A stretch of DNA of 64,000 bases from Bacteroidota bacterium (GTDB lineage Bacteria > Bacteroidota > Ignavibacteria > Kryptoniales > JAKASW01): assembly GCA_021811615.1 (NCBI GenBank), contig JAJZNW010000110.1:28130-92129 (forward strand), given 5' to 3'. This document shows, piece after piece, positions 6,927 through 62,967 of the stretch. Position 1 is the stretch's first letter; each line of letters starts with the position of its first letter. Made by a program: the position numbers and the translations under genes. The notes under the pieces are model-generated. The model did no database searches. It saw only the letters and a program-made list of their open reading frames with translations, and was not told where the DNA came from.

Positions 6927-7050
6927 CAAGAACCACCCTTCCATGAATCCCATCCCCCGGATTGAAACCGTTAATTGCGGGCGTGGCTTCGGTTTGATTT
7001 CGCTCCCGGTACGGCAGTTTTAACTTCAGAACCAGACTCCTAAAAACTTG

Positions 7051-7164: not shown

Positions 7165-7171
7165 TGCAGAT

Positions 7172-7331: not shown

Positions 7332-7826
7332 TCAGCTCCCCTTCTCCCGGTAGAATCCTATCAGATCCGTATTGGCGGGTTTATAGCCGAGTTGCCGCTG
7401 GAGCGCCACAACCTGGCCCCGGTGATAGGTGAAGTGATTGAAGAGCTGGTTGAACGCCCAAATTTTCGGATGGAAATATTTGTTGCCCCTTGAATCCTGG
7501 TACTCCATCCTGGACAGGAGCTGAGCGTCGTTCATCGCTGCCAGCACGCCGGTCATCCTGTTGTCCAGATCATCCCACGTTTTCCGGAAATCTTCGACGT
7601 TGTTAAGTTGCGAGGCGTCGATGGGGATAATCTGATTACCTTCGAGCCTGCTCAGCCAGATGTTTTCGGCATTCACCATATGAAAGAGGGTCCCTTGTAT
7701 CCCTCCGTGACTCGAGTGAAGATCTTTCGCAAAATCTTCCTGTTTCATTTGAGCGAGGGAATCAAGAAGTCTTGCCTTCGCCCACTGGTTGTAATCAAAA
7801 AGCTCCAACAAATCGTTCCTGTTCAT
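7332..7826 (-). CDS. DinB family metal-dependent protein
   Basis: This 164-residue protein has the DinB/YfiT four-helix-bundle pattern. It begins with LLELFDYNQWAKARLLDSL, has a first histidine in FHMVNAENIWLSRL (about residue 49) and a C-terminal His pair in FNHFTYHRGQV (about 131-135), the three-His metal site of the family. It ends with the typical DLIGFYREKGS. Family members include thiol transferases and damage-induced proteins, so the reaction cannot be named. It appears monocistronic. Confidence 0.88.
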   Translation of the reverse strand: MNRNDLLELFDYNQWAKARLLDSLAQMKQEDFAKDLHSSHGGIQGTLFHMVNAENIWLSRLEGNQIIPIDASQLNNVEDFRKTWDDLDNRMTGVLAAMNDAQLLSRMEYQDSRGNKYFHPKIWAFNQLFNHFTYHRGQVVALQRQLGYKPANTDLIGFYREKGS

Positions 7827-7939
7827 TTTGTATCTCCGTCAATTTTTAAGGTAGACTAAGAACGGAACAGCCCGGAGGGAGAACAAGTTGCACAGCGAGG
7901 CGGAGCGATGCCGGAGTTTCTATCCGGAGTGCGACTCGC

Positions 7940-7957
7940 GGGGGCGTGAACACCCCC
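7940..7957. terminator. GC-rich hairpin downstream of rpsT
   Basis: The element is GGGGGCGTGAACACCCCC, a strong short stem-loop 20 bases downstream of the S20 stop on the minus strand. It is not followed by a T-run, so it may act as a 3' stabiliser or a Rho-assisted stop rather than a classic intrinsic terminator. Confidence 0.4.
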
Positions 7958-7976
7958 GGTCGACTCTCATCTTCAA

Positions 7977-8252
7977 TTATGCCGTCTGGGCCGGCGGTGT
8001 ATTGAGCTTATTGATATGCTTCGCCAGTTTGGACTTCTGGTTGGCGGCTTTCCTCTTATGGATTATACCCTTCGCAGCGAGTTTATCGAGGGTAGATGTG
8101 GCTTCCTTCATAGCGGCGGCTGCTTTATCCTTGTCGGTTTCAGTCTTTGCCTTCTTAAGAAGAGTCTTAACTTCAGACTTGATTCCCCTGTTGACAGCGC
8201 GACGTTTGTTGCTCTGGCGGGCTCTTTTTTCCGCCGACTTGTGTTGTGCCAT
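7977..8252 (-). CDS. rpsT: 30S ribosomal protein S20
   Basis: This 91-residue basic protein begins MAQHKSAEKRARQSNKRRAV, the standard S20 N-terminus, and contains the conserved KGIIHKRKAANQKSKLAKHI near its end. S20 binds 16S rRNA early in 30S assembly. The open frame extends 19 codons upstream, but the ATG at 8250-8252 is chosen because it matches the family start and has AAAGGA a few bases before it. It starts 14 bases after the GalT-like gene's stop, so the two are likely co-transcribed. Confidence 0.97.
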   Translation of the reverse strand: MAQHKSAEKRARQSNKRRAVNRGIKSEVKTLLKKAKTETDKDKAAAAMKEATSTLDKLAAKGIIHKRKAANQKSKLAKHINKLNTPPAQTA

Positions 8253-8266
8253 GACGATTCCTTTGT

Positions 8267-9583
8267 TTATTTTAAGTAATACTTCAGCGGATTCGGCTGC
8301 AGTTTGCATTCCTCCGCAATTCTCGCATATTCGATTTTCTTTTCGTCCCTGAGCTTGTAGAGGACCGGTACGAGCCGGTCGCGAAGCTCGACGGGAGTCA
8401 TAGGGTTGATATAGATGCTTGTACCGCCTTCAAACCCTGCGGGGACATTTATTCTCCACTTTATCAAGATCCTCCAGGGCATTTTGTAAACGGAGTCGAT
8501 CGGGGTGTAGTACCATTCTTCGTTGCACGAAATGAAAGGTCCGGTGGCCGCATGTATTGCATGGACGAGATTACTCATTCCACGTATCTCTTGCTCGGAA
8601 TGTTCCTGCGGGCGGGAAGCCTGCGACTTTGAGAATATCTCTATCGTAGGAAAGCGATGCCCGATCCCAACGAAGGCGATGGCATAATCGTTCTCCGCGA
8701 AAACAAGATTGTGGTGTCCGGCGAAATTAGGTCCATACTCGTTGAAGCAGTTCGGATCTTCGCGGACCATCCTGGTTTGATCACCGATAGACGCTCCCCA
8801 CTCGTCGAGAGCGACGAGCTGTTTGTGGAGATGATCGACGGAAGCGCCCGCAGGGCTCAGCCAGTTCTGGAAAATGCTTATATACCTCGCATACCTGTTC
8901 GTCGAAAAGATGTCGATCATCGAATCTATCGCGAACTTCATGTATTGATAATGCTCGTCGGGAGTCAGGTCGCCGGAGGATAAGAGCTGGTTATCGAATT
9001 TCGCTTCAGGACGAAAATGTTTATGTGCGATTATGATCTCGTGACTCCCGCCGAAGAATGAGTCGGCGAGATGAAGTTTTTCTTCAAGCGGGGCCTTCTC
9101 GACCTCCTCGAAGGATTTCCCCAGCCTGTTCATTTTGTAGTTGATGATATCAATGATATGCCTGAGACCGACCGGGTTGTTAAGATAACTCTCGCGCCAC
9201 TTGACCTGTTTCGGGGTGAGTTTATAGCTGTAGTTCTTTCTCCAGTAGTCCAGGGTGACGATCTCGAAAAGGTTCGGTACCCTTCTGAAGACGGGAGAGG
9301 TCTCGGTGTACCTGTCGGGTGCAAGGTACTCAAGCTTCACGAAGTTATTCCCGTCCTTCACCAGCCGGGCTTTTTCAGGAGGCGTTTCGAAAAAACGGGT
9401 CTCGCAGAAGCTGCAGTAGTCTTCTTTCTCCTTCGTCGCGATCTTCTTCGGCTGGACGGTCTGGCCGGCCGATACCGGCTTGCTGCTCCTTCCGGGCACA
9501 GCCCAGACCTCGGTCCCGGTGAAAGGGCTCACCTGCTTGGTAGTGCCGTCAGGCATTATATGGTAGTAATTTGCGTAATCCAA
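8267..9583 (-). CDS. GalT-like HIT-superfamily protein (DUF4921-like)
   Basis: This 438-residue protein resembles galactose-1-phosphate uridylyltransferase. It has PFTGTEVWAVPGR near the N-terminus, a zinc-type CxxC (DYCSFC) and the active-site-like DHLHKQL, where true GalT has HPHxQ. Members act on nucleotide-sugar or sugar-phosphate substrates; the substrate here is unknown and no other Leloir-pathway gene is nearby. The first possible codon is TTG at 9581-9583; ATG at 9554-9556 (MPDGTTKQ) is an equally good start by homology. It lies directly upstream of rpsT and diverges from the isocitrate dehydrogenase gene. Confidence 0.75.
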   Translation of the reverse strand: MDYANYYHIMPDGTTKQVSPFTGTEVWAVPGRSSKPVSAGQTVQPKKIATKEKEDYCSFCETRFFETPPEKARLVKDGNNFVKLEYLAPDRYTETSPVFRRVPNLFEIVTLDYWRKNYSYKLTPKQVKWRESYLNNPVGLRHIIDIINYKMNRLGKSFEEVEKAPLEEKLHLADSFFGGSHEIIIAHKHFRPEAKFDNQLLSSGDLTPDEHYQYMKFAIDSMIDIFSTNRYARYISIFQNWLSPAGASVDHLHKQLVALDEWGASIGDQTRMVREDPNCFNEYGPNFAGHHNLVFAENDYAIAFVGIGHRFPTIEIFSKSQASRPQEHSEQEIRGMSNLVHAIHAATGPFISCNEEWYYTPIDSVYKMPWRILIKWRINVPAGFEGGTSIYINPMTPVELRDRLVPVLYKLRDEKKIEYARIAEECKLQPNPLKYYLK

Positions 9584-9724
9584 TTCGGGGTTCTTCTGAG
9601 AAAATACTGCAAAATTTAACTCTAATAGGAAGAAATAGCAAAGTAGATGGAATCCCAGGCGGGCCGCAGGTTTGATTTTCAGGCCACCGCGATATATTTT
9701 TTTGTACCAACAAAGCAGGAGAAC

Positions 9725-10735
9725 ATGCCCTACACAATTACACTCATACCAGGGGACGGAATCGGGCCGGAGATCAGCAGTGCAGCGAAACGCGTGGTGG
9801 AATCCACCGGCGTCAAAGTCGACTGGGATGTCCAGGAAGCGGGGCTAAATGCAATCGATAAATACAAAGATCCACTCCCGCAGTCGGTAATCGAATCGAT
9901 CGGGAAAAACAAAGTCGCTTTGAAAGGCCCCCTGACCACACCTGTCGGTACTGGGTTCAGGAGTGTAAACGTCGCTCTGAGGAAGGAGTTCGAGCTTTAC
10001 TCGAACCTTCGTCCTGCGAGATCGTTCGAGGGAGTTAAGGCACGCTACGACAAAATAGACCTCATAATAGTCCGTGAGAACACGGAAGAGTTCTACAGCG
10101 GGATAGAGCACTACGTAGACGCGAAGAGGAGTGCAGCGGAAACCATCGGCATCGTGACGAGGACGGGCTCGGAGAGAATAATCCGATTCGCATTCGAATA
10201 CGCGAGGGCTCACGGCAGGAAGAAGGTCACCGTAGTCCACAAGGCGAACATACTGAAATATACCAGCGGTTTGTTCCTGGACATTGCCAGGTCGATGTCC
10301 AAGGAATACCCAGATATTGAAATGAACGACAAGATCATAGATAACATGGCGATGCAAATGGTAATCAACCCGTACCAATTCGACGTCGTCGTGACTACGA
10401 ATCTCTTCGGAGATATACTATCGGATCTCGCTTCGGGGCTGGTGGGCGGGCTCGGAGTGGCACCGGGCGCGAATCTCGGCTACAACACCGCGATTTTCGA
10501 GGCCGTACACGGCAGCGCGCCTGACATCGCCGGTAAGAATATTGCCAATCCGTCGGCACTGATCCTGGCGTCCGCGATGATGCTCGAGCACATTGGAGAG
10601 CAAGACGCAGCGCAAAGGATCGAAAGAGCTGTCGCATCCGTCATCAAGGAAGGGAAAAAAGTAACCAGAGACCTCAACCCCGACCGGCCCGTTTCGACGG
10701 ACGAGATGGCGGACGCGATCATAGAGAACCTTTAA
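9725..10735 (+). CDS. NAD-type isocitrate dehydrogenase
   Basis: This 336-residue beta-decarboxylating dehydrogenase begins YTITLIPGDGIGPEI. It has the substrate-binding segment STGFRSVNVALRKEFELYSNLRP-like (about 75-95), the VRENTEEFYSGIE loop and the metal/nucleotide segment DVVVTTNLFGDILSDLASG, followed by EAVHGSAPDIAGKNIANP. The short length and loop sequence match the mitochondrial Idh3-type and some bacterial NAD-dependent enzymes. Isopropylmalate or homoisocitrate dehydrogenase are less likely alternatives. The ATG at 9725 has AGGAGA just upstream; the longer frame from 9647 lacks such a site. Confidence 0.85.
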   Translation: MPYTITLIPGDGIGPEISSAAKRVVESTGVKVDWDVQEAGLNAIDKYKDPLPQSVIESIGKNKVALKGPLTTPVGTGFRSVNVALRKEFELYSNLRPARSFEGVKARYDKIDLIIVRENTEEFYSGIEHYVDAKRSAAETIGIVTRTGSERIIRFAFEYARAHGRKKVTVVHKANILKYTSGLFLDIARSMSKEYPDIEMNDKIIDNMAMQMVINPYQFDVVVTTNLFGDILSDLASGLVGGLGVAPGANLGYNTAIFEAVHGSAPDIAGKNIANPSALILASAMMLEHIGEQDAAQRIERAVASVIKEGKKVTRDLNPDRPVSTDEMADAIIENL

Positions 10736-51628: not shown

Positions 51629-53431
51629 ATGAAACGAACATTAATGGTGTTTCTACTCTTAGCGTCCGCAGTCATAACCAGGCAAGCATCTGCGCAGGTG
51701 TTCTTCACGGCCAGCCTCGGTCCGGGGACTTCGGTAGTCTCCAACGGGACCGGCACCGCTTGGGCCGTTCTGAACATGGCACAGAAGTCACTTACATTCA
51801 GAATCACGTACGCTAAGCTTGACAGCACATTCACACACGCGCATTTTCATTTAGGTGCGGAAGGCACGAACGGGCCGGTGGTGTTCCCGCTCGATACTTT
51901 CTTTGTGGGCAATACCGCAGAGGGCACATGGTATAACATACCGGACTCATTGATTTCCGCCCTCATGAAAGGCGACATATACATAAATATACACACGCTT
52001 AAATATCCGGCGGGCGAGATTCGCGGCCAATTGGAAGCCTCTCCGGACATGGGAATCTCGATGAGCCTTGACGGCTCGCAGGATGTTCAGCCCCTGCCGG
52101 TCGGAGGGACGGGAACCGGGTGGGCGATTTTCAATCCCGATTCAAATATTCTTTACTTTCGCGTGACTGTCGCCGGTCTGACATCGGGCATAACGGGCTC
52201 CCATTTCCACCTCGGCGCTGCGGGGACCAACGGACCGGTAGTCTTCCCGTTCGACATGACCGATAGTACCTTCACCGGCTCCTGGGCGTTCCCGGATTCG
52301 ATGTGGACAGATCTCGTGACAAACCAGCTGTATGTGAACATACACACGCAGAAGAATCCCGCCGGCGAAATAAGGGGACAGTTCACATTGCAGCCGACCT
52401 CAAATATTTTCCTTGCGGCCTCCCTGGACGGAGCGAACCAGGTACCCGCAGTGACGTCGAACGGGGCAGGGACTGCATGGGTCGTCTTGAACGTTACTCC
52501 CGGTTCGGGCTCACTTACGTACAGGCTGACGTACGCCGACCTGGACAGCACCTTTACCGCAGCACATTTCCATCACGGTGCACCCGGCGTCAACGGTCCT
52601 GTAGTCATGCCGATCACGACATTCTCGGGGAACTCAGCCCAGGGCACCTGGTCGAATATACCCGACAGTCTTGTCGACGCGATGCTGAGCGGGGATATCT
52701 ACCTGAATGTTCACTCAGCTGCACATCCAGCGGGAGAGTTGCGCGGTCAACTCGAAAGACCGGACGGCGTTCCGTTCTCAATCAGCCTCTCGAGTGATCA
52801 AAGCGTGCCCGCTCTTTCGACCACCGGTACCGGCACAGGCTGGGCGGTGCTCGACACTACCGGCACGAACGTCAGCTATGACATAACGGTTGCGACACTA
52901 TCCTCAAACATAATCGCAGTCCACTTCCACGACGGTGCCGCCGGCGTCAACGGCCCGGTGGTTGAGCCGCTTTCATACACAATGATCGGCGCGAGCGGGA
53001 TATGGACCCCGGTGCCCGATAGTCTAATTCCGACGCTGCTCAACGGAGATATTTACTCGAACTTCCATTCTTCCGATCACCCGGCGGGAGAGATACGCGG
53101 TCAGCTCCTCCTTGACAACGGCTCGCTGCTGACAGCCATCGTCCAGACGAAGGACCCCGTCCCGAACACGTTCCGGTTAAGCCAGAATTACCCCAACCCG
53201 TTCAACCCGTCTACGATAATTCAGTATAGCGTCCCGGCGAAGTCCCAGGTGAAGCTCATCGTGTACAACATACTCGGCGAGAAAGTGACTACTCTTGTCG
53301 ACGCGGTCGAAAGTCCGGGGACACACGAAGTCATCTTCAACGGAGACCGGTTCGCGAGCGGAGTTTATTTCTACAGGCTAACCGCAAACGGGAACACATT
53401 CCTGACGAAGAAGATGGTTCTGCTTAAATAG
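51629..53431 (+). CDS. Secreted four-repeat CHRD protein with T9SS sorting tail
   Basis: This 600-residue protein has a signal peptide (to about residue 23) and four CHRD repeats (about 24-138, 140-255, 258-377, 380-497). Each contains an HFHxGAxGxNGPVV-type core and a GDIYxNxH...PAGEIRGQL end. A C-terminal type A sorting domain follows (LSQNYPNPFNPSTIIQYSVP...GVYFYRLTANG...KKMVLLK), used by type IX secretion. CHRD domains, first seen in chordin, have no known bacterial activity. Strong AGGAGGAG precedes the ATG and a terminator follows. Confidence 0.9.
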   Translation: MKRTLMVFLLLASAVITRQASAQVFFTASLGPGTSVVSNGTGTAWAVLNMAQKSLTFRITYAKLDSTFTHAHFHLGAEGTNGPVVFPLDTFFVGNTAEGTWYNIPDSLISALMKGDIYINIHTLKYPAGEIRGQLEASPDMGISMSLDGSQDVQPLPVGGTGTGWAIFNPDSNILYFRVTVAGLTSGITGSHFHLGAAGTNGPVVFPFDMTDSTFTGSWAFPDSMWTDLVTNQLYVNIHTQKNPAGEIRGQFTLQPTSNIFLAASLDGANQVPAVTSNGAGTAWVVLNVTPGSGSLTYRLTYADLDSTFTAAHFHHGAPGVNGPVVMPITTFSGNSAQGTWSNIPDSLVDAMLSGDIYLNVHSAAHPAGELRGQLERPDGVPFSISLSSDQSVPALSTTGTGTGWAVLDTTGTNVSYDITVATLSSNIIAVHFHDGAAGVNGPVVEPLSYTMIGASGIWTPVPDSLIPTLLNGDIYSNFHSSDHPAGEIRGQLLLDNGSLLTAIVQTKDPVPNTFRLSQNYPNPFNPSTIIQYSVPAKSQVKLIVYNILGEKVTTLVDAVESPGTHEVIFNGDRFASGVYFYRLTANGNTFLTKKMVLLK

Positions 53432-53606: not shown

Positions 53607-54983
53607 CTACTCATAGATGAATCCCCTGTTTATGTAGTAGGTCACTCCGACGTTGAGAGAGTTGTCTATAGTCTCTCCACGCACTGGAGCCATGTAGTTC
53701 TCGTTGTCAAAGTAGTCCCAGGAATAGGAAGCGGATAACGAGATGTGGTCTTCGACGAAATAGTTGATGGACGCACCTAGATTATCCGACAGACTTCTCG
53801 CTTTGTCAGCCATATTGATGAACAGTAAGCCAAAATCATCGTATGCGGCGAGCACGATCCGGTCGGTCAGCTCATAATCGTAGGCCACATTTGCGCTGCC
53901 AGTATACTGCTGTCTCATCTGGGAATCCTTCACGATGTTCGGCCCCCCGGAGAGGCTTATGCCAAAAGCGAGCTGCGAATTGAGGTTCAACTGATGGCTG
54001 TACTGCGCGTAGGCATTTCCCATCGTGTAAAGTGCTTCGGCCATGTTCCAGACGCCTGGAGAGATCGTTTGAAACTGGTTACTGTAGTCAACCTGCAGCT
54101 GCACACCGGCGACGGCGCCCTCTCTTCTCATGAACCTCAGTTCGTTAGGGACTTCTCTCAGATATGAATCCGAATATTGATTCAGGCCGGCCAGCGATAC
54201 CCCGTCCCTTGCGAGAGCATTCTGTACATTCTGCCAGAAGTATTTGTCCGGTCGAACATAAACATCGCCGTAATATCCTTCCCTGTAAAACTGTTGTGCC
54301 AGATCCTCGATGGTACTTTCGCTTAAATCCCCCTTCAGCAGATTGAGCTGCTTCAGCCTTTGCTGAAAACGTACTGCGGATACAACAGCGGTAACGTTCC
54401 TCATCTTGCCGACTCCGATCCCAAGCCCGAAGTTGTAATTTTGAAACTTCGCTCCGGAATATGATGCGGTTGGATAATTTGCTGAGCCATTGCCATAGTT
54501 AGCAGACATATTGAAGATAGAATACGTGTTGACCGACCAAAACATGTTTCCGGATCCGTCATAGTCGCGGTACGTCCCATTCAAAGTAAAGGACAGTGAA
54601 TTAATGGATTGGGAAAGATTCCCCGGAGCGCCGAAGTTGCCGTCGTCGATTTGCTTGTACTGCTGGTTCGTGTTGCCGCTGGCGATGACATTCAGGCTCA
54701 AATATCGGTTGTCAGATTCCTCCAGCAGGAGATATTGCGGCGACAAGTCGGCCTCCAGGACTGAAGTAAACTCGCTCGCGTTCGGTCCGTTACCCGGAAG
54801 AACTGCATCGTTTTCCGAATTATAGTTCAGGTGAGTATTCAGCCACAACGAGCTCAGTTCAGTCTTCGGTATTTTGAACCTTGAAAAAACTTCAGGATTT
54901 GTGTTGCCGAGGCCGTACGATTGTGAATATGCCACCTGATAAGTGCTCGTAAAAAGGATCGCTAATGCAACAATGCGTTTCAT
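53607..54983 (-). CDS. Outer-membrane beta-barrel protein of unknown role
   Basis: This 458-residue protein has an N-terminal signal peptide (RIVALAILFTSTYQVAYSQS). The body has many short amphipathic strands with aromatic and polar alternation (YLSLNVIASGNTNQQ, ISLSASYSWDYFDNE) and a C-terminal strand NVGVTYYINRGFIYE, typical of an outer-membrane barrel. I find no plug or TonB box and no assignable family. Two tandem ATATGGGGAG repeats lie upstream, between it and the archaemetzincin gene, and may control it. Confidence 0.75.
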   Translation of the reverse strand: MKRIVALAILFTSTYQVAYSQSYGLGNTNPEVFSRFKIPKTELSSLWLNTHLNYNSENDAVLPGNGPNASEFTSVLEADLSPQYLLLEESDNRYLSLNVIASGNTNQQYKQIDDGNFGAPGNLSQSINSLSFTLNGTYRDYDGSGNMFWSVNTYSIFNMSANYGNGSANYPTASYSGAKFQNYNFGLGIGVGKMRNVTAVVSAVRFQQRLKQLNLLKGDLSESTIEDLAQQFYREGYYGDVYVRPDKYFWQNVQNALARDGVSLAGLNQYSDSYLREVPNELRFMRREGAVAGVQLQVDYSNQFQTISPGVWNMAEALYTMGNAYAQYSHQLNLNSQLAFGISLSGGPNIVKDSQMRQQYTGSANVAYDYELTDRIVLAAYDDFGLLFINMADKARSLSDNLGASINYFVEDHISLSASYSWDYFDNENYMAPVRGETIDNSLNVGVTYYINRGFIYE

Positions 54984-55161: not shown

Positions 55162-55713
55162 TCAGTTGTCGCCCAGCTTCGAGAGCAATTGCCCCGAGCA
55201 AGTCGAACAGAACCTGTCAGTTTTGACGTCGATTTCCTCGGCCCCCGTAGAAGAGTGCATTACACACAAGTAGTTGTTGCAATGCAGAAGACCGAACGCA
55301 TGTCCCAGCTCGTGTATCGATTCCTTAACGAGACGAAGATTCAGCAGGTTTGGATCCGGTGCGAGGCCGTATAATTCCTCACGAAGCCGGTGGGAGGAGA
55401 CTACCGCCACCTTTCCGTCAAGCTGTGCTTCCCCGAAGACATAAGTGAGAACCGGAACGAAGAGATCGCCTGAAGTTACGCCAAGGATCCTCCCGTCGAA
55501 ATCTTCAAACTTCTCGAGCAGTGACGTGATCAGGGCCGTAGAAGAATATTGGTTCCTGGACAAGTTGAATGCAAACGAACCGTCAAGCTGGACGGCCCGG
55601 GTGACCTCTATACGGCACCGGAAAGCTGAGGTAAGCGGCTTCACTAGCGGTTGAAGGAGCGTGCGGTCGACGGGGCTGATCGCGACGATAAGAATCGAAG
55701 AGGCGTTCGCCAT
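55162..55713 (-). CDS. amzA: Archaemetzincin-like zinc protease
   Basis: This is a 183-residue M54-family metallopeptidase. The active-site motif HELGHAFGLLHC (H134, E135, H138, H144) is followed by C145, C150, C169 and C172, the second zinc site of archaemetzincins; M152 and the FCSTC segment fit the family. No signal peptide is seen, so it is probably cytoplasmic. Its ATG is 17 bases after the sigma-54 regulator stop, so it is probably the third gene of the two-component operon. Its substrate is unknown. Confidence 0.9.
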   Translation of the reverse strand: MANASSILIVAISPVDRTLLQPLVKPLTSAFRCRIEVTRAVQLDGSFAFNLSRNQYSSTALITSLLEKFEDFDGRILGVTSGDLFVPVLTYVFGEAQLDGKVAVVSSHRLREELYGLAPDPNLLNLRLVKESIHELGHAFGLLHCNNYLCVMHSSTGAEEIDVKTDRFCSTCSGQLLSKLGDN

Positions 55714-55730: not shown

Positions 55731-57107
55731 TTAAGCCTGAGGTTTTTTCAGCCCGTATTTCGAAATCTTGCTGTAGAGAGTTACCCGATCGATTCCAAGC
55801 GCCTCCGCGCTGTGGGTGATGTTCCAGCTGTGCTTTGCCAGGACCTTCGCGATGTGGGTCTTCTCCATGCTCGTGATAAGGTCGTCCTGCTGCTCTTCAG
55901 CCTCATGAAGTTGTGAAAGCTGGAAAGGAAGATCGCCGGTCTTTATGGCGGGCGGCTTGGCGAGCACCATGGCACGCTCGATGACGTTCTCCAGTTCGCG
56001 GATATTGCCAGGCCACCTGTTACGGATTAAAAGGTCCATCGCCTCCGGATCGATTCCGACCGTCTGTTTGTTCATGAGAGTCGCATATTTTTGTACAAAA
56101 TGATCGACGAGTGGCGGGATATCCACACGTCTTTCTCTCAGCGGGGGGATGAAGATCGTAAAGACGTTCAGCCTGTAATACAGGTCCTCACGAAAACTTC
56201 CATCCCCTATCGCAGCTTCCAGGTCGCGGTTCGTGGCGCAGATCACCCGGAAATCGCTGGAGATCATTTCATTGCCGCCCACTCTCGTGAACTGTTTTGT
56301 CTCGAGCACACGAAGGAGCTGCACCTGCATCTTCTGGCTGATTGTGCCGATCTCATCGAGGAAGATCGTTCCCCCGTCGGCCATCTCGAACTTACCTTTC
56401 CGCCTGAACTGCGCGCCGGTGAAGGCCCCCTTTTCATGGCCGAAGAGCTCGCTTTCAAGAAGAGTCTCAGGAACTGCTCCGCAGTTTACAGTTATAATAG
56501 GGAAGTATTTTCTAGCGGAGTTGGCGTGAATCGTCCTGGCGACGAGCTCCTTTCCGGTCCCGCTTTCGCCCCGTATCATAACGGTCGTGTCGGTTTTCGC
56601 GACTGTCTTCGCGAGGTCGATAACCTTCTTCATTTGCGAACTCTCGCCGACTATCTCCTCGACCCCGGAGAGTTCCGACATCTGCTGGCGGAGGCGCCAG
56701 TTCTCATCTGTAAGCTTCTTCGTTCTTAGGGCGTTCTGGACGAGATGCGAGAGATGCTCCGGGTCGACAGGCTTCGTGACGTAGTCAAATGCCCCCTCCT
56801 TCAACGCTTGCACGGCGCTGTCGACGGCTGCGAATGCCGTAATCATAATCACGCAGGCGCCCTTGTCGATTTCCCCGATTCTTTTCTGAAGCTCCAGACC
56901 GTCCATGCCGGGCATCTTGATATCGAGCAGTATGACGTCCCACGGTCCGTCGTTCATGAGCGTTAACGCCTTAGCGGCATTTTCGGCGGAACCGACCTTA
57001 AAGCCGTCCTCTCTGAACCACTTGCTCAGCGAATCGCGGACCGAAAGCTCGTCATCGACGATCAGTATGCTCGATTGAGAGTTCTTCTCACTGTTTGCCA
57101 TATTCAT
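55731..57107 (-). CDS. NtrC-family sigma-54-dependent response regulator
   Basis: This is a 458-residue regulator. A receiver domain has phosphoacceptor D62, T90 and K112 in VTKPVDP. The AAA+ domain has Walker A GESGTGKE (180-187), the sigma-54-contacting GAFTGA (227-232) and Walker B GGTIFLDEIG (245-254). The C-terminal helix-turn-helix (THIAKVLAKHSWNITHSAEA) is of the Fis type. Every key motif is intact, so it should activate sigma-54 promoters. It follows the sensor kinase by 3 bases. Targets are probably the adjacent redox genes. Confidence 0.96.
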   Translation of the reverse strand: MNMANSEKNSQSSILIVDDELSVRDSLSKWFREDGFKVGSAENAAKALTLMNDGPWDVILLDIKMPGMDGLELQKRIGEIDKGACVIMITAFAAVDSAVQALKEGAFDYVTKPVDPEHLSHLVQNALRTKKLTDENWRLRQQMSELSGVEEIVGESSQMKKVIDLAKTVAKTDTTVMIRGESGTGKELVARTIHANSARKYFPIITVNCGAVPETLLESELFGHEKGAFTGAQFRRKGKFEMADGGTIFLDEIGTISQKMQVQLLRVLETKQFTRVGGNEMISSDFRVICATNRDLEAAIGDGSFREDLYYRLNVFTIFIPPLRERRVDIPPLVDHFVQKYATLMNKQTVGIDPEAMDLLIRNRWPGNIRELENVIERAMVLAKPPAIKTGDLPFQLSQLHEAEEQQDDLITSMEKTHIAKVLAKHSWNITHSAEALGIDRVTLYSKISKYGLKKPQA

Positions 57108-57110
57108 TTC

Positions 57111-58739
57111 TCAATTCTTCTTTACATTTGCCAATATCGATCCACCGGCTTTTTCCGGATTCACCGGCAGCACAATGGTAACCGTTGTCCCGATGCCCTG
57201 TGTGGAATCGACTTCAATTCTCCCGTTATGCCGTTCGACAATTCCATGTACCACGGCCAGGCCGAGCCCCGTCCCTTTCCCGTCCTTCTTCGTCGTGAAG
57301 AACGGTTCAAATATGTGCTCGAGGTCATCTTTGTTTATGCCGATGCCGTTGTCGATCACTTTTATCTCGATCTCGTCTTGGGTTGCGATTTTTTTCATCG
57401 TAATTTTCAGCGTACCACCTTCCGGCATCGCTTCTATGGCATTTATTTCGAGAGCTATCAGGGCCTGCTCGAGTTGCTGAGGGTCGCAAATCGTTTCCAC
57501 AGGCGTATCCGGAACGTCGACCTCTGCCCTGACGTTGTTCATGGCCAGATGATGCGCGATCAGCTTAAGGCTTTGATTTATGACCGGGGCTAAGTTCTGG
57601 AGCTGAAACTCACCTATCTTCTGCCTGGAAAACAGGAGGAGATTATTGACGATGTTGCCGCATCTCGTGCTCTCGTCGGCAATCATCGTCAGTTCGTCGC
57701 CGATCCCTTTCAGGCTGTCCTCCGTCAGATCTCCTTTAGCAAGTTGTTTCTTCAGCAACTTTGCGTAAGCGAGGATACCGGCAAGAGGATTATTCAACTC
57801 GTGGGCGACGCTGGCAGCGAGTTTTCCAAGAGAGGCCATCTTCTCCATCTGTACCATGTTCGAGAGAGCCCTGCGGAGCTCATCGGTCTTTTGTTCCACA
57901 CGCTCCTCGAGGGTCTGAGTCCATTCGGTAAGCTCATCGCGTGCCCTGCCGAGTTCTTCTGTCATCTTGTTGAACGAATCGGCGAGATCGCCGATCTCAT
58001 CGGACGAATGCACTCTGATCCTGTGGTCCAGGTTCCCCTTTGTAATCTCACGAGTCCCTTCGGTCAGCCTCCTAACCGGGATATTGACCATCGTCCAGAT
58101 GAAGATCCCTGCGAATATCGTGACACTCAACACCATAAGCGCCCCGCCGAAATACGAATACTGTCTAAGCTGTACAAGACTTGCATCCATCGCTTTGAGC
58201 GGCAGCATGACGTCGAGGACGCCGAGCACCGTCTGGTTGGCCGGATGTTCATGGCACGGCGCCTTATAGCAGCTCGGTTCGTTTTTGATGGGAGTGATTA
58301 CCCCTAACACGCGGTAGCCCTTCGGCGAATAGAAAATCCTCGTCAGTGCCGAATTGCCGTTTGTCGGCAGCGCCTTCCCCGGCTTATGGCACACGTTGCA
58401 TGCTTCGGCGTTCATGTTGACATACTTGCCGACTTCGCTGGCGACGGTGGAATAAGTTATCTCGCCTCTTTTGTTGTAGATGCGGATAGCCTGTATCCCG
58501 GGCTCGGATCCGAGAGTGTTGATCGTCCGGTAGATGTCTTCCCGCCGGTTTTCCAGCATGCTGTAGTGTGTCGATCTTTTGATCAGATCGCTCGTGCGGA
58601 GAGCCCAGTCGGTTGTAATGCTCAGATACTTCTCGGTATGCCAGTTCAACATGACTGCCGTGAAGATCGCCGTGGCGATGATCATGACGAGAAGCACGAT
58701 CACGAATAATCGGAATGCCAGATATCTGGTTATGCGCAT
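57111..58739 (-). CDS. Membrane sensor kinase with CxxCH and CxxxxCH motifs
   Basis: This 542-residue sensor has two membrane helices (about 10-31 and 196-218) around a periplasmic domain that holds C114xxCH (C114, C117, H118) and C157xxxxCH (C157, C162, H163). The first is a standard c-type haem attachment site; the second has one of the known longer spacings. A HAMP domain (220-275), a HisKA box with H313 (VAHELNNPLAG) and an HATPase with N433, DNGIGI and GTGLGL follow. The likely signal is redox state, oxygen or small gases. It is paired with the downstream sigma-54 regulator. Ordinary metal or disulfide binding by the cysteines cannot be excluded. Confidence 0.93.
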   Translation of the reverse strand: MRITRYLAFRLFVIVLLVMIIATAIFTAVMLNWHTEKYLSITTDWALRTSDLIKRSTHYSMLENRREDIYRTINTLGSEPGIQAIRIYNKRGEITYSTVASEVGKYVNMNAEACNVCHKPGKALPTNGNSALTRIFYSPKGYRVLGVITPIKNEPSCYKAPCHEHPANQTVLGVLDVMLPLKAMDASLVQLRQYSYFGGALMVLSVTIFAGIFIWTMVNIPVRRLTEGTREITKGNLDHRIRVHSSDEIGDLADSFNKMTEELGRARDELTEWTQTLEERVEQKTDELRRALSNMVQMEKMASLGKLAASVAHELNNPLAGILAYAKLLKKQLAKGDLTEDSLKGIGDELTMIADESTRCGNIVNNLLLFSRQKIGEFQLQNLAPVINQSLKLIAHHLAMNNVRAEVDVPDTPVETICDPQQLEQALIALEINAIEAMPEGGTLKITMKKIATQDEIEIKVIDNGIGINKDDLEHIFEPFFTTKKDGKGTGLGLAVVHGIVERHNGRIEVDSTQGIGTTVTIVLPVNPEKAGGSILANVKKN

Positions 58740-58920: not shown

Positions 58921-59736
58921 CTACCTCGTGCCTGAGAAGAGAGTCTCCAGGAAAGAAACATATCTTGAAGTGCCGAGGAGGTCCTTCAAATTGCGAGGAC
59001 GGATACCGCCGTCCATCAATGTCACGCCGAGAGAAGCCGGCAGGGCATCGAATTCCATGATGAGATTCTGTTTCAACCCCGTGAACTGTTCCCTGGAAAT
59101 CGACTCCATAGCTGATGCATCGAAGCATGCCGCTTGACTTTTATCCGAACAGGATAGCTCAGCGAACCAGCCGGCGCCATAAGGATCCCGCCTGACAATC
59201 GCAATAGATTCCATGACCTCCGGGTTCACACACTTAACCTTTCCATCCAGAGGCGATTGCACGGCGATGGTGCCTTCTTCGCATGTCATCCATGCGCAAG
59301 GATTGTCTTTGAAGGTCGAGGTTCCGGGCTTGGGCAGCACAATGCTGCCCACTCCCTCGAGAAGCCCGGCAACGAAATGATCTATTCCGACCTGAAAGGT
59401 ATTTGGAACCGTCTCCTTCAACCATACATGGCCTCGCGTATACATCCTGTCGGAGGGAGGCTTCATCGACAAAGGGCCGGCGAAAATACCCCTGATGACA
59501 TCGAGCATGGAGTCTTGTCTGGTTCGGGCTTTGGAACCGGCGGCCCCCTGGGCAGGCTTCCCTGCCCGGGTTGCAGAGGCGGGGATCGACTTCTGGCGCA
59601 TGACCTGATCGAATGGGCATTCGTCGCATTCAAAATTCCGGTCGCACAGTTTATACGAAACAAGGCCGGCATCGACCCAGATGCAATTAAGCTCGCCTTC
59701 CGGTATCACTTTGCTTATCGTTTTCTTTTCTTCCAT
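58921..59736 (-). CDS. GcvH-like protein with N-terminal cysteine motif, no lipoyl lysine
   Basis: This 271-residue soluble protein starts at ATG 59736. The N-terminus has cysteines C18, C31, C37 and C40 in CIWVDAGLVSYKLCD and ECDECP, a pattern I know from redox-linked proteins. Residues 98-195 follow the glycine-cleavage H-protein fold (GHVWLKETV, FQVGIDHFVAGLLEG, SIVLPKPG, VQSPLDGKV, DPYGAGWFAEL). The position of the lipoyl-lysine is Glu (E154). The C-terminus has GVTLMDGG (237-244). It lies 25 bases after the HybB-like gene, in its operon. An unlipoylated scaffold or sensor role is inference. Confidence 0.8.
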   Translation of the reverse strand: MEEKKTISKVIPEGELNCIWVDAGLVSYKLCDRNFECDECPFDQVMRQKSIPASATRAGKPAQGAAGSKARTRQDSMLDVIRGIFAGPLSMKPPSDRMYTRGHVWLKETVPNTFQVGIDHFVAGLLEGVGSIVLPKPGTSTFKDNPCAWMTCEEGTIAVQSPLDGKVKCVNPEVMESIAIVRRDPYGAGWFAELSCSDKSQAACFDASAMESISREQFTGLKQNLIMEFDALPASLGVTLMDGGIRPRNLKDLLGTSRYVSFLETLFSGTR

Positions 59737-59761
59737 GTCACACCCGCCTCTGCTGAGTTGA

Positions 59762-61003
59762 CTACTTTGCCTCCATCCCGAAGGATGGCTCGCCTTTAAG
59801 CTGGGCATCGTCCTCGATCACTACCACTTCATAGCTCTCCGCCTTCACGGGCTCTGCCGCCGTCGCAGCCTCCGGAAACACGGCAAGGTTTTTCGCTGCC
59901 CAGGCGAAAGCGCCGAAGCCGAGCGCTACTATCATAAGCGTCACTGAGACTTCCATCCAGCTCGGGAAGTAGGCAACGCCGTAATGCCTTTCGAGCGAGG
60001 TCACGCTGACGTTCATCCTGTTAAGGACAAACCCCATCACTGCAAAGAGAGCACTATAGTACAGACCGCGTTTGTTGTTTCTGATCCTGGGGATCACAAG
60101 CATCGTAATCGGAATAACGACTCCGATCATGATCTCCGCCCAGAAGAGAATCCCCTCCGTATTGAATGTAAAGAGATACGAGAAGAGGTGATAATTTAAC
60201 ATATCTTCGATCCTGAGGACGAGGTAAACGGCGAGGGCCACGGCAGTGACCTTGCCCAGTTTCGACAAAATCGGCATTTCGATTTCCCTGTGGAATGCGC
60301 GCGAGCTGAGAAACGATTCCATTATTACCATGGCCGGTCCTACGGCCACCGCCGAGATGAAGAAAAGGAACGGTAGGTTTCCCGTGTACCATAAAGGGTA
60401 GACCTTTTCCGGCATGACCAGATACAGCGACCCGAGGGACGACTGGTGAAGAGAGGAGAGCATGACGCCGAGGATCACGAGCGGAACGATCATCTTATGC
60501 ACCACTTCGGCGGCCTTATGAAGATGGAAACGTTCAAAGACCATGGGGCTGAATTCAAACGCGAGGACCGTCGTGTAAAGCATGACACACCATGCGAGCT
60601 CGAACATGGGGGAGTGCGGATTCCACATGACGAGAGGGTGCCATATATTCCACGGCCTTCCAAGGTCGAACATGAGAGCGAACACAACGAGCACGTAACC
60701 GAGGAACGCGGTCAGCACGGCCGGCCTGGCGATCGGTTTGTAATAATCAAGATGGAAGACGTAAACGGCGCCGGCAACGACGAATCCTCCCGCGGCCAGG
60801 CCGACACCGCAAAGGACGTCGAATCCGATCCATATTCCCCAGGGGAACTTGTCGCTCAGGTTAGTCGCAGCACCGAGGCCATAGACGAAGCGGACGTAAG
60901 TGGAATACAGCCCGGCAACGACGAGCACAAGGAACACAGATTTCCAGAAGGTCATGTGCCTGAACCAAAAGGCTATTTTCGATAGGACTCCGTTATTTCG
61001 CAT
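59762..61003 (-). CDS. NrfD/HybB-type membrane subunit
   Basis: This is a 413-residue integral membrane protein with about ten helices. Its sequence (GVVIPITMLVIPRIRNNKRG, FDLGRPWNIWHPLVMWNPHS, LWYTGNLPFLFFISAVAVGP) is like the HybB/NrfD family that exchanges electrons with menaquinone. A short cytoplasmic-type acidic tail follows the last helix. Its start overlaps the ferredoxin gene by 11 bases, so translation is coupled. The catalytic partner that gives or takes electrons is not in the window. Confidence 0.93.
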   Translation of the reverse strand: MRNNGVLSKIAFWFRHMTFWKSVFLVLVVAGLYSTYVRFVYGLGAATNLSDKFPWGIWIGFDVLCGVGLAAGGFVVAGAVYVFHLDYYKPIARPAVLTAFLGYVLVVFALMFDLGRPWNIWHPLVMWNPHSPMFELAWCVMLYTTVLAFEFSPMVFERFHLHKAAEVVHKMIVPLVILGVMLSSLHQSSLGSLYLVMPEKVYPLWYTGNLPFLFFISAVAVGPAMVIMESFLSSRAFHREIEMPILSKLGKVTAVALAVYLVLRIEDMLNYHLFSYLFTFNTEGILFWAEIMIGVVIPITMLVIPRIRNNKRGLYYSALFAVMGFVLNRMNVSVTSLERHYGVAYFPSWMEVSVTLMIVALGFGAFAWAAKNLAVFPEAATAAEPVKAESYEVVVIEDDAQLKGEPSFGMEAK

Positions 61004-61799
61004 CTTTTCCTCCGCTCGTCTGCTCTTTGATTTCCAATTCGTCGGGTTCCGTTCTCCCGCGCTTCAATTCGTCTTCGTATTCCGCGACTTTTTTCTTCCG
61101 ATTCGTAAGCCACCAGAAGCCCGCCATCAGAGTACTCCCCCAGACGAAATAGTCAGGGATCTTCTCCATGATGTCCCAGGTATACTTGGGCAGAGCCCTC
61201 TTCGGAAGATTCGTGGGGAAGCCGAGTTTTCCGAAGTCCTCGCCGGCAAGATAGATAGTGGAAGTGCCGCCGACTTCGGTAGTGCCGAATATATGCTGGA
61301 CATAAGTCCCGGGGTTGTTCTTTATTCGTTTCTTCGCTTCTTCGATCAAGTCGTCGCGGTATCCGAATACTCTGGCCTGTGCCGGACACGCCTCAACGCA
61401 GGCGGGCTGTTTCCCCTCCAGCTGGCGAGGATAGCACATATCACATTTTGTGACCTTAGGAGCAGGCTTGTTCCATTGATACTTCGGTATCTGGAACGGG
61501 CATGCCTGCACACAGTAGCGGCATCCCATGCATTTGTCTACATCATAAACCACAGGTCCTGAAGCTGTCTTATGAATCGCTCCAACCGGGCAGACCGATG
61601 CACATGTCGGTTCCTCGCAGTGCATGCAGAGCCTCGCGACGTAAGTTTGTCCGTATTGCTGAACGACGGTGTTCTTTTCACACGATAGCTCGTGCACATC
61701 CGTATGAGGGAATCCCCATCGGTCGGCGCACGCGTCCTCACACGCCATGCAACCTATACATTGAGTCGTGTCTACTAAAATTCCTACCTGCTTTTTCAT
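60993..61799 (-). CDS. Four-cluster ferredoxin subunit, HybA/DmsB-like
   Basis: This 268-residue protein has sixteen cluster cysteines: C14, C17, C20, C24; C58, C61, C66, C70; C90, C93, C96, C100; C119, C122, C134, C138. They are in the arrangement of HybA, DmsB and NrfC-type subunits. A single C-terminal helix (PDYFVWGSTLMAGFWWL, 215-232) would anchor it to the membrane. No Tat or Sec leader is seen, so its orientation is unclear. AAAGGA precedes the ATG at 61799. It passes electrons to the HybB-like subunit. Confidence 0.93.
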   Translation of the reverse strand: MKKQVGILVDTTQCIGCMACEDACADRWGFPHTDVHELSCEKNTVVQQYGQTYVARLCMHCEEPTCASVCPVGAIHKTASGPVVYDVDKCMGCRYCVQACPFQIPKYQWNKPAPKVTKCDMCYPRQLEGKQPACVEACPAQARVFGYRDDLIEEAKKRIKNNPGTYVQHIFGTTEVGGTSTIYLAGEDFGKLGFPTNLPKRALPKYTWDIMEKIPDYFVWGSTLMAGFWWLTNRKKKVAEYEDELKRGRTEPDELEIKEQTSGGKDAK

Positions 61800-61840
61800 T
61801 TCGATTGTCCTTTTCCAGTTAACGACCAATAATTAGGTGA

Positions 61841-62542
61841 TTACTTCCCGTTTCCCGCTCCCAGGAAATCGGTCTCGAACCTTCGCCAGATTTCCTGCGG
61901 TGAGTGTTCCATGACGTCGTTAACCGGCGCGCCTCCATCCATTAAGGTCACACCTGCGGGCAGTGCGGAACCGGAGGCCGCGAGGCCTTCCGTCTGAGCG
62001 GTAATGAAATTTCTGAATCTCTTGATCTCTTCCTTGAGCCACATCGCCGCTTCATTCCCGATGGACAGCTGCTTGATATCGGCCGCCAGATTTGCCGGTT
62101 CGAGCAACAGCACCCAGCCTCCCTTGTACGGCTCTTTCCTCACGACACCGGGAGAGTGTACCAGCTCATCGTTGATCCCGACCACTTTACCCGAGATCGG
62201 CGCATGAAACGAAACCTCTTTTTGTCCCTGCCGGAGAGTGAAGAGTCTATCCCCCTTTTGAACGACGGTGTTCTGAGGAAGGAGCTCAAACGCACTGACG
62301 GGACCGAGGATCTTCTGGACGAAATCGTCGAGACCTACGCGTGTGAGTCCGTCGGGAAGGAGTTCAACCCACGTGTGGCCCTTTCCGAAAAAATATCCTT
62401 TGGGTATTACGAACCTTGGCTTTGCAGAAACGTGTGCGGCGGGAGCAAGCGCCGTCTTCCGTTTTGCTGCCCTTTGCACGAAATAATCGATGACCAGGAA
62501 AACGATTATCGTCGCGACTACGAATAACGCAACCATTTTCAA
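61841..62542 (-). CDS. Membrane-anchored GcvH-like protein, no lipoyl lysine
   Basis: This 233-residue protein has an N-terminal helix (VALFVVATIIVFLVIDYFVQ, 4-23) followed by a GcvH-like domain: KGHTWVELLPDGLTRVGLDD, FELLPQNTVVQKGDRLF, FHAPISGKVVGIND and EPYKGGWVLLLEP. At the lipoyl site the sequence is RQGQKEVSFHAP, so Gln occupies the usual Lys position, with a Lys one residue later. It shares GVTLMDGG (197-204) with the GcvH-like protein at 58921. It heads the operon and is 41 bases upstream of the ferredoxin gene. Confidence 0.8.
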   Translation of the reverse strand: MKMVALFVVATIIVFLVIDYFVQRAAKRKTALAPAAHVSAKPRFVIPKGYFFGKGHTWVELLPDGLTRVGLDDFVQKILGPVSAFELLPQNTVVQKGDRLFTLRQGQKEVSFHAPISGKVVGINDELVHSPGVVRKEPYKGGWVLLLEPANLAADIKQLSIGNEAAMWLKEEIKRFRNFITAQTEGLAASGSALPAGVTLMDGGAPVNDVMEHSPQEIWRRFETDFLGAGNGK

Positions 62543-62853
62543 CCTCCTAAGATTTTGCTTTGGTATGTGAATCCATTCGAGCAGAATACATTCTCACGAT
62601 ACTGCGGCAACGTGCCAGATTCCGCGCTTGAAGGAAATCGGGTCCATACCCCGCACTGCAGCTCTTAAATGAATTCCATTCTCTCTTCATTTGATTTACC
62701 TTTTTCTGAATCACTACAGCTATAAGTTCAAATGGCGTTCCAAAACTGCGCAGATGGAGGAAAGAATACCGACGAGTAACTGTTGGTCAATCAGTGGATT
62801 GGCGTGACGGGGAAATCGACACTGCGAGAGTTGGGGAGTCACAGCGTACTCCA

Positions 62854-62967
62854 GTTGAATCGCTCAACACCCCGTATTGAGATGATGTTGAGAATCCGCC
62901 TGAATTCCCGGGAATCGCATAAAGTGTCGGGTTGAAATACTCAACGTCATCCGTTTAACAATTCAAC
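62854..62967. promoter_or_regulatory. Three GTTGA-N5-TCAAC operator-like sites
   Basis: Fifteen-base dyads: GTTGA-ATCGC-TCAAC (62854-62868), GTTGA-AATAC-TCAAC (62931-62945) and the slightly degenerate GTTTA-ACAAT-TCAAC (62953-62967). The last two start 22 bases apart, on the same face of the helix; the first is 77 bases from the second. They lie about 310-425 bases upstream of the GcvH-like gene, an enhancer-like distance for an NtrC-type activator. Confidence 0.5.

What the first reader, a model, noticed from the sequence alone, without database searches (positions are those of the whole stretch)
58921..62542. Redox module bracketed by two GcvH-like proteins that cannot carry lipoate in the usual way
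Seen: GcvH-like (membrane-anchored), four-cluster ferredoxin, NrfD/HybB-like subunit and GcvH-like (soluble, with extra cysteines), in one tight minus-strand operon. In both H-like proteins the lipoyl-lysine position is replaced (Glu or Gln), while both share the C-terminal motif GVTLMDGG. Established: NrfD/HybB and HybA-type subunits pass electrons between quinone and a catalytic partner. Inference: the H-like folds were repurposed as scaffolds, electron-transfer partners or sensors of an as yet unnamed membrane complex. No catalytic subunit is encoded here, so the complex may dock to another enzyme. This is my best candidate for an undescribed system.
Basis: partly seen in the sequence, partly recalled or inferred. 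Interest (0 to 1): 0.75.

Follow-up and report, generated by a model that had tools for sequence, protein, structure and literature searches.

The report
Seven-gene heme-sensor redox signalling operon
Two GcvH-like proteins without the usual lipoate lysine belong to a seven-gene set, kept together in several bacterial phyla, that likely senses redox state through a predicted heme-carrying kinase and would switch on its own genes.

Summary
The four genes are real, and the finding is larger than reported. They open a seven-gene minus-strand operon: membrane-anchored GcvH-like (HA), HybA/HmcB-like ferredoxin (FER), NrfD, soluble GcvH-like (HB), a histidine kinase with periplasmic CxxCH and CX4CH motifs (HK), a sigma-54 response regulator (RR) and an archaemetzincin (AMZ). 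In 29 HB-seeded loci with enough flanking DNA, HK and RR are present in 29, FER and NrfD in 27, AMZ in 27. HB has the GcvH fold, but the lipoyl-lysine position is Gln/Glu here and Lys in 9 of 141 relatives. In a sister operon GcvH-like domains are fused to phospho-receivers, and there the C-terminal DGG tail is missing. Sigma-54 promoters (16 of 58 cassettes; 0.17 expected) and a GTTGA-N5-TCAAC dyad (25 copies upstream; 0.03 expected) precede the cassettes; the window has two such dyads. I read it as a self-activating redox-signalling unit in which non-lipoylated GcvH domains link a quinone module to phospho-signalling. Gene content, linkage and promoter motifs are shown; heme loading, electron flow and protein contacts are inferred. 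No description was found in ten full-text searches.

The parts
61841..62536 (-). HA: membrane-anchored GcvH-like protein (one N-terminal TM helix by eye, GCV_H domain, DGG tail); Gln at the lipoyl-lysine position
60993..61829 (-). FER: HybA/HmcB-like ferredoxin, 16 Cys in four groups, C-terminal hydrophobic tail, no Tat signal (ATG start probably at 61799)
59762..61003 (-). NRFD: NrfD/HybB/HmcC-like quinone-interacting membrane subunit
58921..59736 (-). HB: soluble GcvH-like protein with N-terminal Cys4 motif (C18, C31, C37, C40) and DGG tail; Glu at the lipoyl-lysine position
57111..58739 (-). HK: sensor histidine kinase with periplasmic Cache-like domain carrying CxxCH and CX4CH (predicted diheme c)
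55731..57107 (-). RR: NtrC-family sigma-54-dependent response regulator
55162..55713 (-). AMZ: archaemetzincin-family metalloprotease, active-site motif intact
   Evidence: (158.6 bits, cut-off 145)
62854..62868 (.). upstream dyad GTTGA-N5-TCAAC, proposed RR site 1
62931..62945 (.). upstream dyad GTTGA-N5-TCAAC, proposed RR site 2
62727..62742 (-). TGGAACGCCATTTGAA, sigma-54-like promoter variant echoed in close relatives of the window; only copy of TGGAACG-N4-TTGAW in the held genome

Best explanation
The four reported genes are the first part of a conserved seven-gene operon (HA-FER-NRFD-HB-HK-RR-AMZ) that is likely a self-activating redox-signalling unit, in which two GcvH-fold proteins that lack the lipoyl lysine would link a quinone-reactive membrane module to a predicted diheme sensor kinase. 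Shown here: gene content, conserved linkage across phyla, replacement of the lipoyl lysine, the paired heme motifs in the kinase, sigma-54 promoter motifs and a shared dyad upstream, and fusion of GcvH-like domains to receiver domains in a sister operon. Inferred steps: NrfD/FER exchange electrons with the quinone pool; the periplasmic c-hemes of HK report redox state (or nitric oxide); HK phosphorylates RR; RR binds GTTGA-N5-TCAAC and drives sigma-54 transcription of its own operon; HA and HB act on the cytoplasmic side as adaptors that gate HK/RR or the NrfD module (in the sister operon such domains carry the receiver themselves); AMZ is a proteolytic output or feedback arm.
For: Linkage: of 53 HB-seeded loci, 29 have at least 4 kb upstream and 5.5 kb downstream; within 6 kb (AMZ 7.5 kb, either strand) HK 29, RR 29, FER 27, NrfD 27, AMZ 27, all six 24 of 29. 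The exact order H-FER-NRFD-H-HK-RR-AMZ on one strand is seen in 21 of all 53, many of the rest being cut by contig ends. AMZ-seeded set in Desulfacinum's phylum (40 loci from 39 of 63 matching genomes, chosen from the top of the list): 23 have the cassette-type RR within 9 kb; of these 19 also have an H-like gene and 14 a heme-motif HK. Heme motifs: both in 54 of 55 cassette HKs of 480 aa or more; L077 has CxxCH twice. Nearest solved domains are the c-heme sensors 3b42 (GSU0935; E 2.4e-4) and 3b47 (E 1.5e-3), and 3b42_B is also a Foldseek hit. FER+NrfD goes with heme-motif HK: 10 both, 4 heme only, 1 FER/NrfD only, 8 neither (Fisher p 0.009, not corrected for relatedness). Signalling role of the H domain: 12 receiver-GcvH proteins in 8 sister loci; DGG tail in 133 of 139 non-fused and 0 of 12 fused (two confirmed by Pfam). 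Autoregulation: sigma-54 sites 16 of 58 (expected 0.17); dyads 25 in 15 of 58 upstream regions (expected 0.03), 3 elsewhere in 915 kb. The window has two dyads (shuffle mean 0.08); the held genome has seven, and the other five all lie inside long ORFs.
Against: No biochemistry. The electron path is uncertain: FER of the window type has no Tat signal (50 rows in one clade) although its C-tail looks like that of exported relatives, so FER may lie on the opposite side of the membrane from the HK hemes. Seven genes in one operon could simply be a respiratory module with its own regulator; the only intergenic dyads found are those of the operon itself, which fits that rival equally well. Two of 29 loci lack FER/NrfD (L061, L087) and two lack AMZ (L066, L068). 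HK and RR are large families, so part of their 29 of 29 could be unrelated neighbours; L087's kinase has no heme motif. 17 of 40 AMZ-seeded loci have no cassette-type RR within 9 kb (some on short contigs), and 4 of the 23 that do have no H-like gene. Only 15 of 58 upstream regions show the exact dyad and 16 of 58 a strong sigma-54 site; the dyad was picked from some of the same regions and the cassettes are related, so the shuffle expectation overstates significance. The window's own promoter has GA instead of GC at -12. Heme attachment was not tested.
Confidence: 0.5

Rival explanations
1. It is an inducible electron-transfer complex of the HybAB/Hmc type: FER and NrfD move electrons between quinone and an unlinked partner, HA and HB are structural or electron-transfer subunits, and HK/RR merely controls expression.
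For: FER and NrfD are nearest HmcB/HmcC and HybA/HybB models. FER keeps four cluster motifs. HB has an invariant Cys4 motif that could hold a cluster. The only intergenic dyads found in the held genome lie upstream of this operon. A sister operon carries a multiheme cytochrome (Pfam Cytochrom_CIII), and PMC10924467 describes C-tail FeS/HybB-like/octaheme modules.
Against: No catalytic or terminal subunit is in the window cassette. HK and RR are more constant than FER/NrfD (29 against 27 of 29). H-like genes occur with HK/RR/AMZ where FER/NrfD is absent (L061, L209, L228, L232-L234) and such domains are fused to receivers.
Confidence: 0.35
2. The H-like proteins carry lipoate or another acyl or thiol cofactor at a non-standard residue and act as swinging-arm carriers, like LbpA in the sHdr pathway.
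For: GcvH fold conserved (HB model). A Lys lies next to the usual position in HA. 9 of 141 relatives have Lys in the exact column. Cassettes beside HdrA-like proteins exist.
Against: The column is G, N, S, D, E, W and other residues in most relatives, and even orthologues differ. LbpA is reported to keep the lysine strictly (PMC6067878, passage seen). Lipoate ligase genes were not searched for.
Confidence: 0.06
3. The cassette is a nitric-oxide sensing and response unit: HK hemes bind NO rather than report redox state.
For: Heme-Cache domains fused to signalling modules have properties typical of NO sensors (PMC12889525, abstract seen). The HK domain resembles GSU0935, which that paper counts in the family (passages).
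Against: Only 1 of 46 HK domains matches PF11845. Two heme motifs and linkage to a quinone module suggest electron transfer.
Confidence: 0.2

Closest known systems
HybA/HybB of E. coli hydrogenase-2 and HmcB/HmcC of the Desulfovibrio Hmc complex
   Same: FER and NrfD pair, adjacent genes, four-cluster ferredoxin with C-terminal tail
   Different: Scores below the curated cut-offs (FER 236/420 and 205/263 bits; NrfD 329/550 and 310/450); no hydrogenase or HmcA/D/E/F gene among the nine ORFs scanned; FER without Tat signal; GcvH-like, HK, RR and AMZ genes added
C-tail iron-sulfur / HybB-like / octaheme module (PMC10924467, section 12 read)
   Same: Same gene pair; the sister operon here also has a multiheme cytochrome and a Tat-bearing FER
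   Different: The text names no GcvH-like gene and reports no conserved flanking genes; the window cassette has no multiheme cytochrome
Glycine cleavage H protein (GcvH) and LbpA
   Same: GCV_H domain and fold (Foldseek TM-score by target 0.88 to 1onl for HB)
   Different: Lipoyl lysine not conserved; below the GcvH cut-off (46.7 and 55.5 against 115.85 bits); the genome has a separate, ordinary gcvH beside a gcvPA-like gene (the neighbour named by eye)
Heme-Cache (sCache_heme) sensors, e.g. GSU0935/GSU0582
   Same: Periplasmic Cache/PAS-like domain with c-heme motif; second-heme variants are mentioned in PMC3831638 (passage)
   Different: CX4CH at the place of the Geobacter CxxCH plus a second upstream CxxCH; kinase tied to a NrfD cassette
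NtrC-family two-component systems and archaemetzincins
   Same: RR has receiver, AAA+ and Fis-type HTH domains; AMZ passes the archaemetzincin cut-off
   Different: Steady partnership with GcvH-like and NrfD genes; none of the 24 archaemetzincin papers listed suggests a two-component link by title or opening abstract lines (none opened)

Membership tests
GcvH / lipoate carrier | GCV_H domain and fold | tested here: met
   (fold modelled for HB only)
GcvH / lipoate carrier | lipoyl lysine in the conserved hairpin | tested here: not met
   Gln in HA, Glu in HB; Lys in 9 of 141 relatives
GcvH / lipoate carrier | NCBIfam GcvH score cut-off | tested here: not met
   46.7 and 55.5 against 115.85 bits
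LbpA (sHdr) | strictly conserved lysine (as stated in PMC6067878) | tested here: not met
Hmc complex | HmcB and HmcC model cut-offs; HmcA, D, E, F present | tested here: not met
   236.1/420 and 328.9/550 bits; no such genes among the nine ORFs scanned
HybAB of hydrogenase-2 | HybA/HybB cut-offs and hydrogenase subunits | tested here: not met
   205.1/263 and 310.4/450 bits; no hydrogenase gene among the nine ORFs scanned
C-tail FeS/HybB/octaheme module | Tat signal on the FeS protein and a c-type cytochrome gene | tested here: not met
   window FER has no Tat signal and no cytochrome gene is in the cassette; met in the sister operon of L075
Heme-Cache sensor | CxxCH in a periplasmic Cache-like domain | tested here: met
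   but PF11845 in 1 of 46 and PF21563 in 33 of 46 members at E 0.01 (below its cut-off in the window)
Heme-Cache sensor | covalent heme bound | not testable with these tools
   needs expression and heme stain
NtrC-type two-component system | receiver, sigma-54 AAA+ and HTH_8 domains next to a histidine kinase; sigma-54 in the genome | tested here: met
Archaemetzincin | NCBIfam cut-off and HExxHxxGxxH...CxM...CxxC motif | tested here: met
   158.6/145 bits; motif (spacing allowed to vary) in 47 of 50 AMZ of the mapped loci, 2 of the 3 misses cut short

The most novel reading that the evidence does not exclude
The GcvH fold, stripped of its lipoyl lysine, has become a dedicated signalling domain: DGG-tailed or receiver-fused GcvH proteins gate a quinone-fed diheme sensor kinase, and a bacterial archaemetzincin is its proteolytic output. 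The same regulatory core is re-used on cytosolic HdrA-type enzymes. This would be a new class of redox-signalling system found across several phyla.
Probability: 0.3. Interest if true: 0.87.

Novelty: new variant of a known kind. Interest (0 to 1): 0.7.

Why it matters
Several of these GcvH-like proteins carry glycine-cleavage names in the sources although they lack the lipoyl lysine; here they form a conserved partner set with a heme-motif kinase, a NrfD module and a protease. If right, it explains a recurrent misannotation, gives bacterial archaemetzincins a pathway context, and offers a compact operon in which to test how quinone or NO status is turned into transcription in mostly uncultured Bacteroidota, Ignavibacteria, Acidobacteriota and Desulfacinum's relatives. 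The DNA site and promoter predictions make it directly testable in a reporter strain.

Tried and rejected
Rejected: lipoate on the usual lysine; membership in Hmc, HybAB or GcvH by curated cut-offs. A canonical sigma-54 site in the window was looked for and not found (TGGCACG-N4-TTGC has no match in the held genome); the variant motif was found instead. The other five exact dyads in the genome all fall inside long ORFs. PHROGs gave nothing for HA. Paper searches linking GcvH to NrfD, kinases or archaemetzincin gave nothing relevant. Weak points: the greedy gene caller hid some genes behind longer antisense ORFs, so counts rest on six-frame searches. In one search all H-like models merged into one superfamily, so HA and HB are told apart by position, TM segment and Cys motif, not by model score. 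In one search, L061 and L071 count as lacking a second H only because the seed match spans both. L104 duplicates L081 and was dropped; it was counted, and rows were not otherwise deduplicated. Short or cut loci (24 of 53) were left out of the 29-locus count and are listed. Rows left out of the FER tree: the C31-type ferredoxins (L006, L110, L111), duplicates and incomplete ones. Alignment A3 holds the window plus 45 of 53 non-redundant kinases, all chosen for having both heme motifs; A4 holds 48 of the 55 HB homologues.
Full report
WHAT IS THERE. The operon runs on the minus strand from HA (62536) to AMZ (55162): HA, FER, NRFD, HB, HK, RR, AMZ. HA and HB carry a GCV_H domain; FER is a 16-Cys ferredoxin nearest HmcB/HybA; NRFD is nearest HmcC/HybB; HK has HAMP, HisKA and HATPase domains; RR has receiver, sigma-54 AAA+ and HTH_8 domains; AMZ passes the archaemetzincin cut-off. 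The roughly 560-base gap between deoC and HA holds the regulatory sites. The same genome has a normal gcvH beside a gcvPA-like gene (the neighbour named by eye), so the two H-like proteins are not its ordinary glycine cleavage H protein.

LIPOATE. Aligning 145 H-domain rows to the genome's own GcvH (one of the rows is that protein; three have a gap at the site), the lysine column is Gln in HA, Glu in HB and Lys in 9 of 141. Relatives of those nine often have other residues there. AlphaFold of HB with 48 rows (mean pLDDT 75.5; residues 91-190 above 90 in most ten-residue blocks) matches solved GcvH structures (1onl_A TM-score by target 0.88, rmsd 2.0). HB adds an N-terminal segment with four Cys invariant in the 48 rows, modelled with low confidence.

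LINKAGE. A scan of genome contigs with the HB profile gave 53 loci, titled Bacteroidetes/Ignavibacteria, Acidobacteria (Blastocatellia), Gemmatimonadota, KSB1, Planctomycetes, Nitrospinae, Neomarinimicrobiota, a deltaproteobacterial MAG, some unnamed bacteria and the isolate Desulfacinum hydrothermale. Of the 29 with at least 4 kb upstream and 5.5 kb downstream, HK 29, RR 29, FER 27, NrfD 27, AMZ 27, second H 24 (two of the five misses, L061 and L071, are counting artefacts), all six 24. The exact order H-FER-NRFD-H-HK-RR-AMZ on one strand occurs in 21 of 53; the others are cut by contig ends or are variants: HB and HA first in L065, L071-L074, FER first in L054, an extra H in L060 and L062. 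In the window's relatives, 40 of 41 genomes have a match to HA, but this includes ordinary GcvH hits. Exceptions: L061 (Blastocatellia) and L087 (Desulfacinum) lack FER/NrfD; the planctomycete loci L066 and L068 lack AMZ and a second H.

TEST FROM THE PROTEASE. Archaemetzincin was searched in 198 genomes of the window's phylum: 39 match. Of the 30 loci returned, the 13 with a strong match to the cassette AMZ profile all have the sigma-54 RR beside them; 10 with weak matches do not; 7 do not match the profile. In Desulfacinum's phylum 63 of 148 genomes match. I fetched 40 loci from 39 of these genomes, mostly the best-scoring ones: 17 AMZ have no cassette-type RR within 9 kb (a few on short contigs); 23 do. 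Of those 23, 19 have an H-like gene, 14 a heme-motif HK and 11 FER+NrfD. FER+NrfD and heme-motif HK go together (10 both, 4 heme only, 1 FER/NrfD only, 8 neither; Fisher p 0.009, phylogeny not corrected). In 6 of the 8 with neither, a Cys-motif H gene is still beside HK, RR and AMZ. In L209 and L228 an HdrA-like flavoprotein follows, in L194 HdrC/HdrA-like genes, in L087 an HdrA-like protein and a formate-dehydrogenase-like gene (the Hdr and FDH names are my reading of sequences and Pfam domains; MTHFR in L228 is a Pfam hit, in L209 read by eye). L232-L234 have other neighbours. So the regulatory core appears re-usable.

THE KINASE. Of 55 cassette HKs of 480 aa or more (preceded by H or NrfD and followed by RR on the same strand), 54 have CxxCH and, about 40 residues on, CX4CH; the exception, L077, has CxxCH twice. 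In the Desulfacinum-phylum set L224 shows only CxxCH and L222 none. The Cys and His of both motifs are invariant in the 46-row alignment, which was built only from HKs carrying both. The model (pLDDT 84.8) is a Cache-like domain; sequence profile and Foldseek both find GSU0935, a periplasmic c-heme sensor domain of Geobacter, though WalK Cache domains rank higher in Foldseek. PMC12889525 (abstract and passages seen) groups GSU0935 with heme-Cache domains that have NO-sensor properties when fused to signalling modules.

PROMOTERS AND DYADS. Across 58 distinct cassette upstream regions, 16 have a sigma-54 site scoring at least 14 of 15.5, against 0.17 expected from dinucleotide shuffles. The dyad GTTGA-N5-TCAAC, found by comparing upstream regions, occurs 25 times in 15 of 58 upstream regions (0.03 expected) and 3 times in the other 915 kb of the same loci (two-cassette loci counted twice). 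Caveats: the dyad was picked from some of these regions, and the 15 include six from close relatives of the window and five from Acidobacteria-type loci, so they are not independent. The window has exactly two, at 62854 and 62931, spaced 77 bases, both upstream of HA. The held genome (84% complete) has seven copies; the other five all fall inside long ORFs. The best sigma-54-like site of the window, TGGAACG-N4-TTGAA, has GA for GC at -12 but is echoed in related loci and is unique in the genome. RpoN is present. I infer that RR activates its own operon; that this RR binds this dyad is not shown.

THE H DOMAIN AS SIGNALLING PART. In 8 loci (L060, L067, L075, L083, L084, L090, L106, L108) GcvH domains are fused to receivers, beside HK, NrfD and FER. 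In L075, read in full, the sister operon runs FER(Tat)-NRFD-multiheme cytochrome-HK-receiver-GcvH-TM-receiver-GcvH, and Pfam confirms Response_reg plus GCV_H in both fusion proteins. All 12 receiver-fused H proteins lack the DGG tail, whereas 133 of 139 non-fused ones have it; the six without are the true GcvH, the planctomycete L066 and L068, L070 and L078 (short rows), and L100. In L067, L083, L084 and L090 the sister operon lies back to back with a full window-type operon, in L075 with an HB-HK pair. Since receivers act in the cytosol (established knowledge), the H domains of that family are cytosolic, while FER of the sister operon carries a Tat signal; this argues against a direct FER-H electron path there.

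THE FERREDOXIN. The window-type FERs lack a Tat signal; in a 74-row tree 50 of the 51 Tat-less rows form one side of a branch (support 100/99), the 51st (L060) sits among Tat-bearing ones and may be truncated. All 11 FERs of the fetched Desulfacinum-phylum loci have it. The conserved C-tail with basic residues after it resembles the exported form, so the compartment of the window's FER stays open. PMC10924467 reports signal-less C-tail FeS proteins that probably hitchhike with a Tat partner (section 12); I saw no Tat-bearing partner in this cassette.

HOW IT MOST LIKELY WORKS. NrfD and FER equilibrate with quinone (inferred from family); the periplasmic hemes of HK report redox state or NO (inferred from motif and fold); HK passes phosphate to RR (inferred from family); RR turns on the operon by the dyads and sigma-54 (supported by sequence statistics); HA and HB couple these parts through the GcvH fold (inferred from linkage and receiver fusions); AMZ trims a target of the unit (inferred). 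The chief rival, a regulated respiratory module, shares most evidence and differs on what HA and HB do.

LITERATURE. Ten full-text searches of the open PMC library found no description of this gene set. Subscription papers are mostly missing there, so absence is not proof. Papers seen: PMC10924467 section 12 and passages; PMC6067878 passages; PMC12889525 abstract and passages; PMC3831638 passages; all others in search listings only.

Noticed in passing
L006 (G000:C31) 2285-9752: A paralogous operon in the same genome: two further H-like proteins, NrfD, ferredoxin, a Tat-bearing molybdopterin-type oxidoreductase and a multiheme cytochrome (the last two named by eye), with an archaemetzincin and sigma-54 regulator alongside on the other strand; a relative that has a catalytic-type subunit.
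   Followed up: partly
L209, L228, L194, L087: HK-RR-AMZ-H without FER/NrfD sits beside HdrA-like flavoproteins (MTHFR by Pfam in L228).
   Followed up: partly
L076, L077, L081, L062, L105 (between HB and HK): A gene for a protein of about 171-176 aa inserted in the operon; in L076 it is a multiheme cytochrome c554-type protein by Pfam (the others not tested).
   Followed up: partly
L060, L067, L075, L083, L084, L090, L106, L108: Receiver-GcvH fusion proteins, with and without an N-terminal TM helix, lacking the DGG tail.
   Followed up: yes
L061: Blastocatellia cassette that keeps HB-HA-HK-RR-AMZ but has no FER or NrfD nearby.
   Followed up: no
L193, L054 (genome G230): A Gemmatimonadota genome carries three archaemetzincin genes over the cut-off, two of them in complete cassettes (L054, L193).
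   Followed up: partly
window 51629-53431: 600-aa protein of about four repeats with a signal-like start and a C-terminal sorting-like end, downstream of the operon on the other strand (read by eye).
   Followed up: no
window 53607-54983: 458-aa protein downstream of AMZ with no Pfam or NCBIfam match; related proteins follow the cassette in some close relatives.
   Followed up: no
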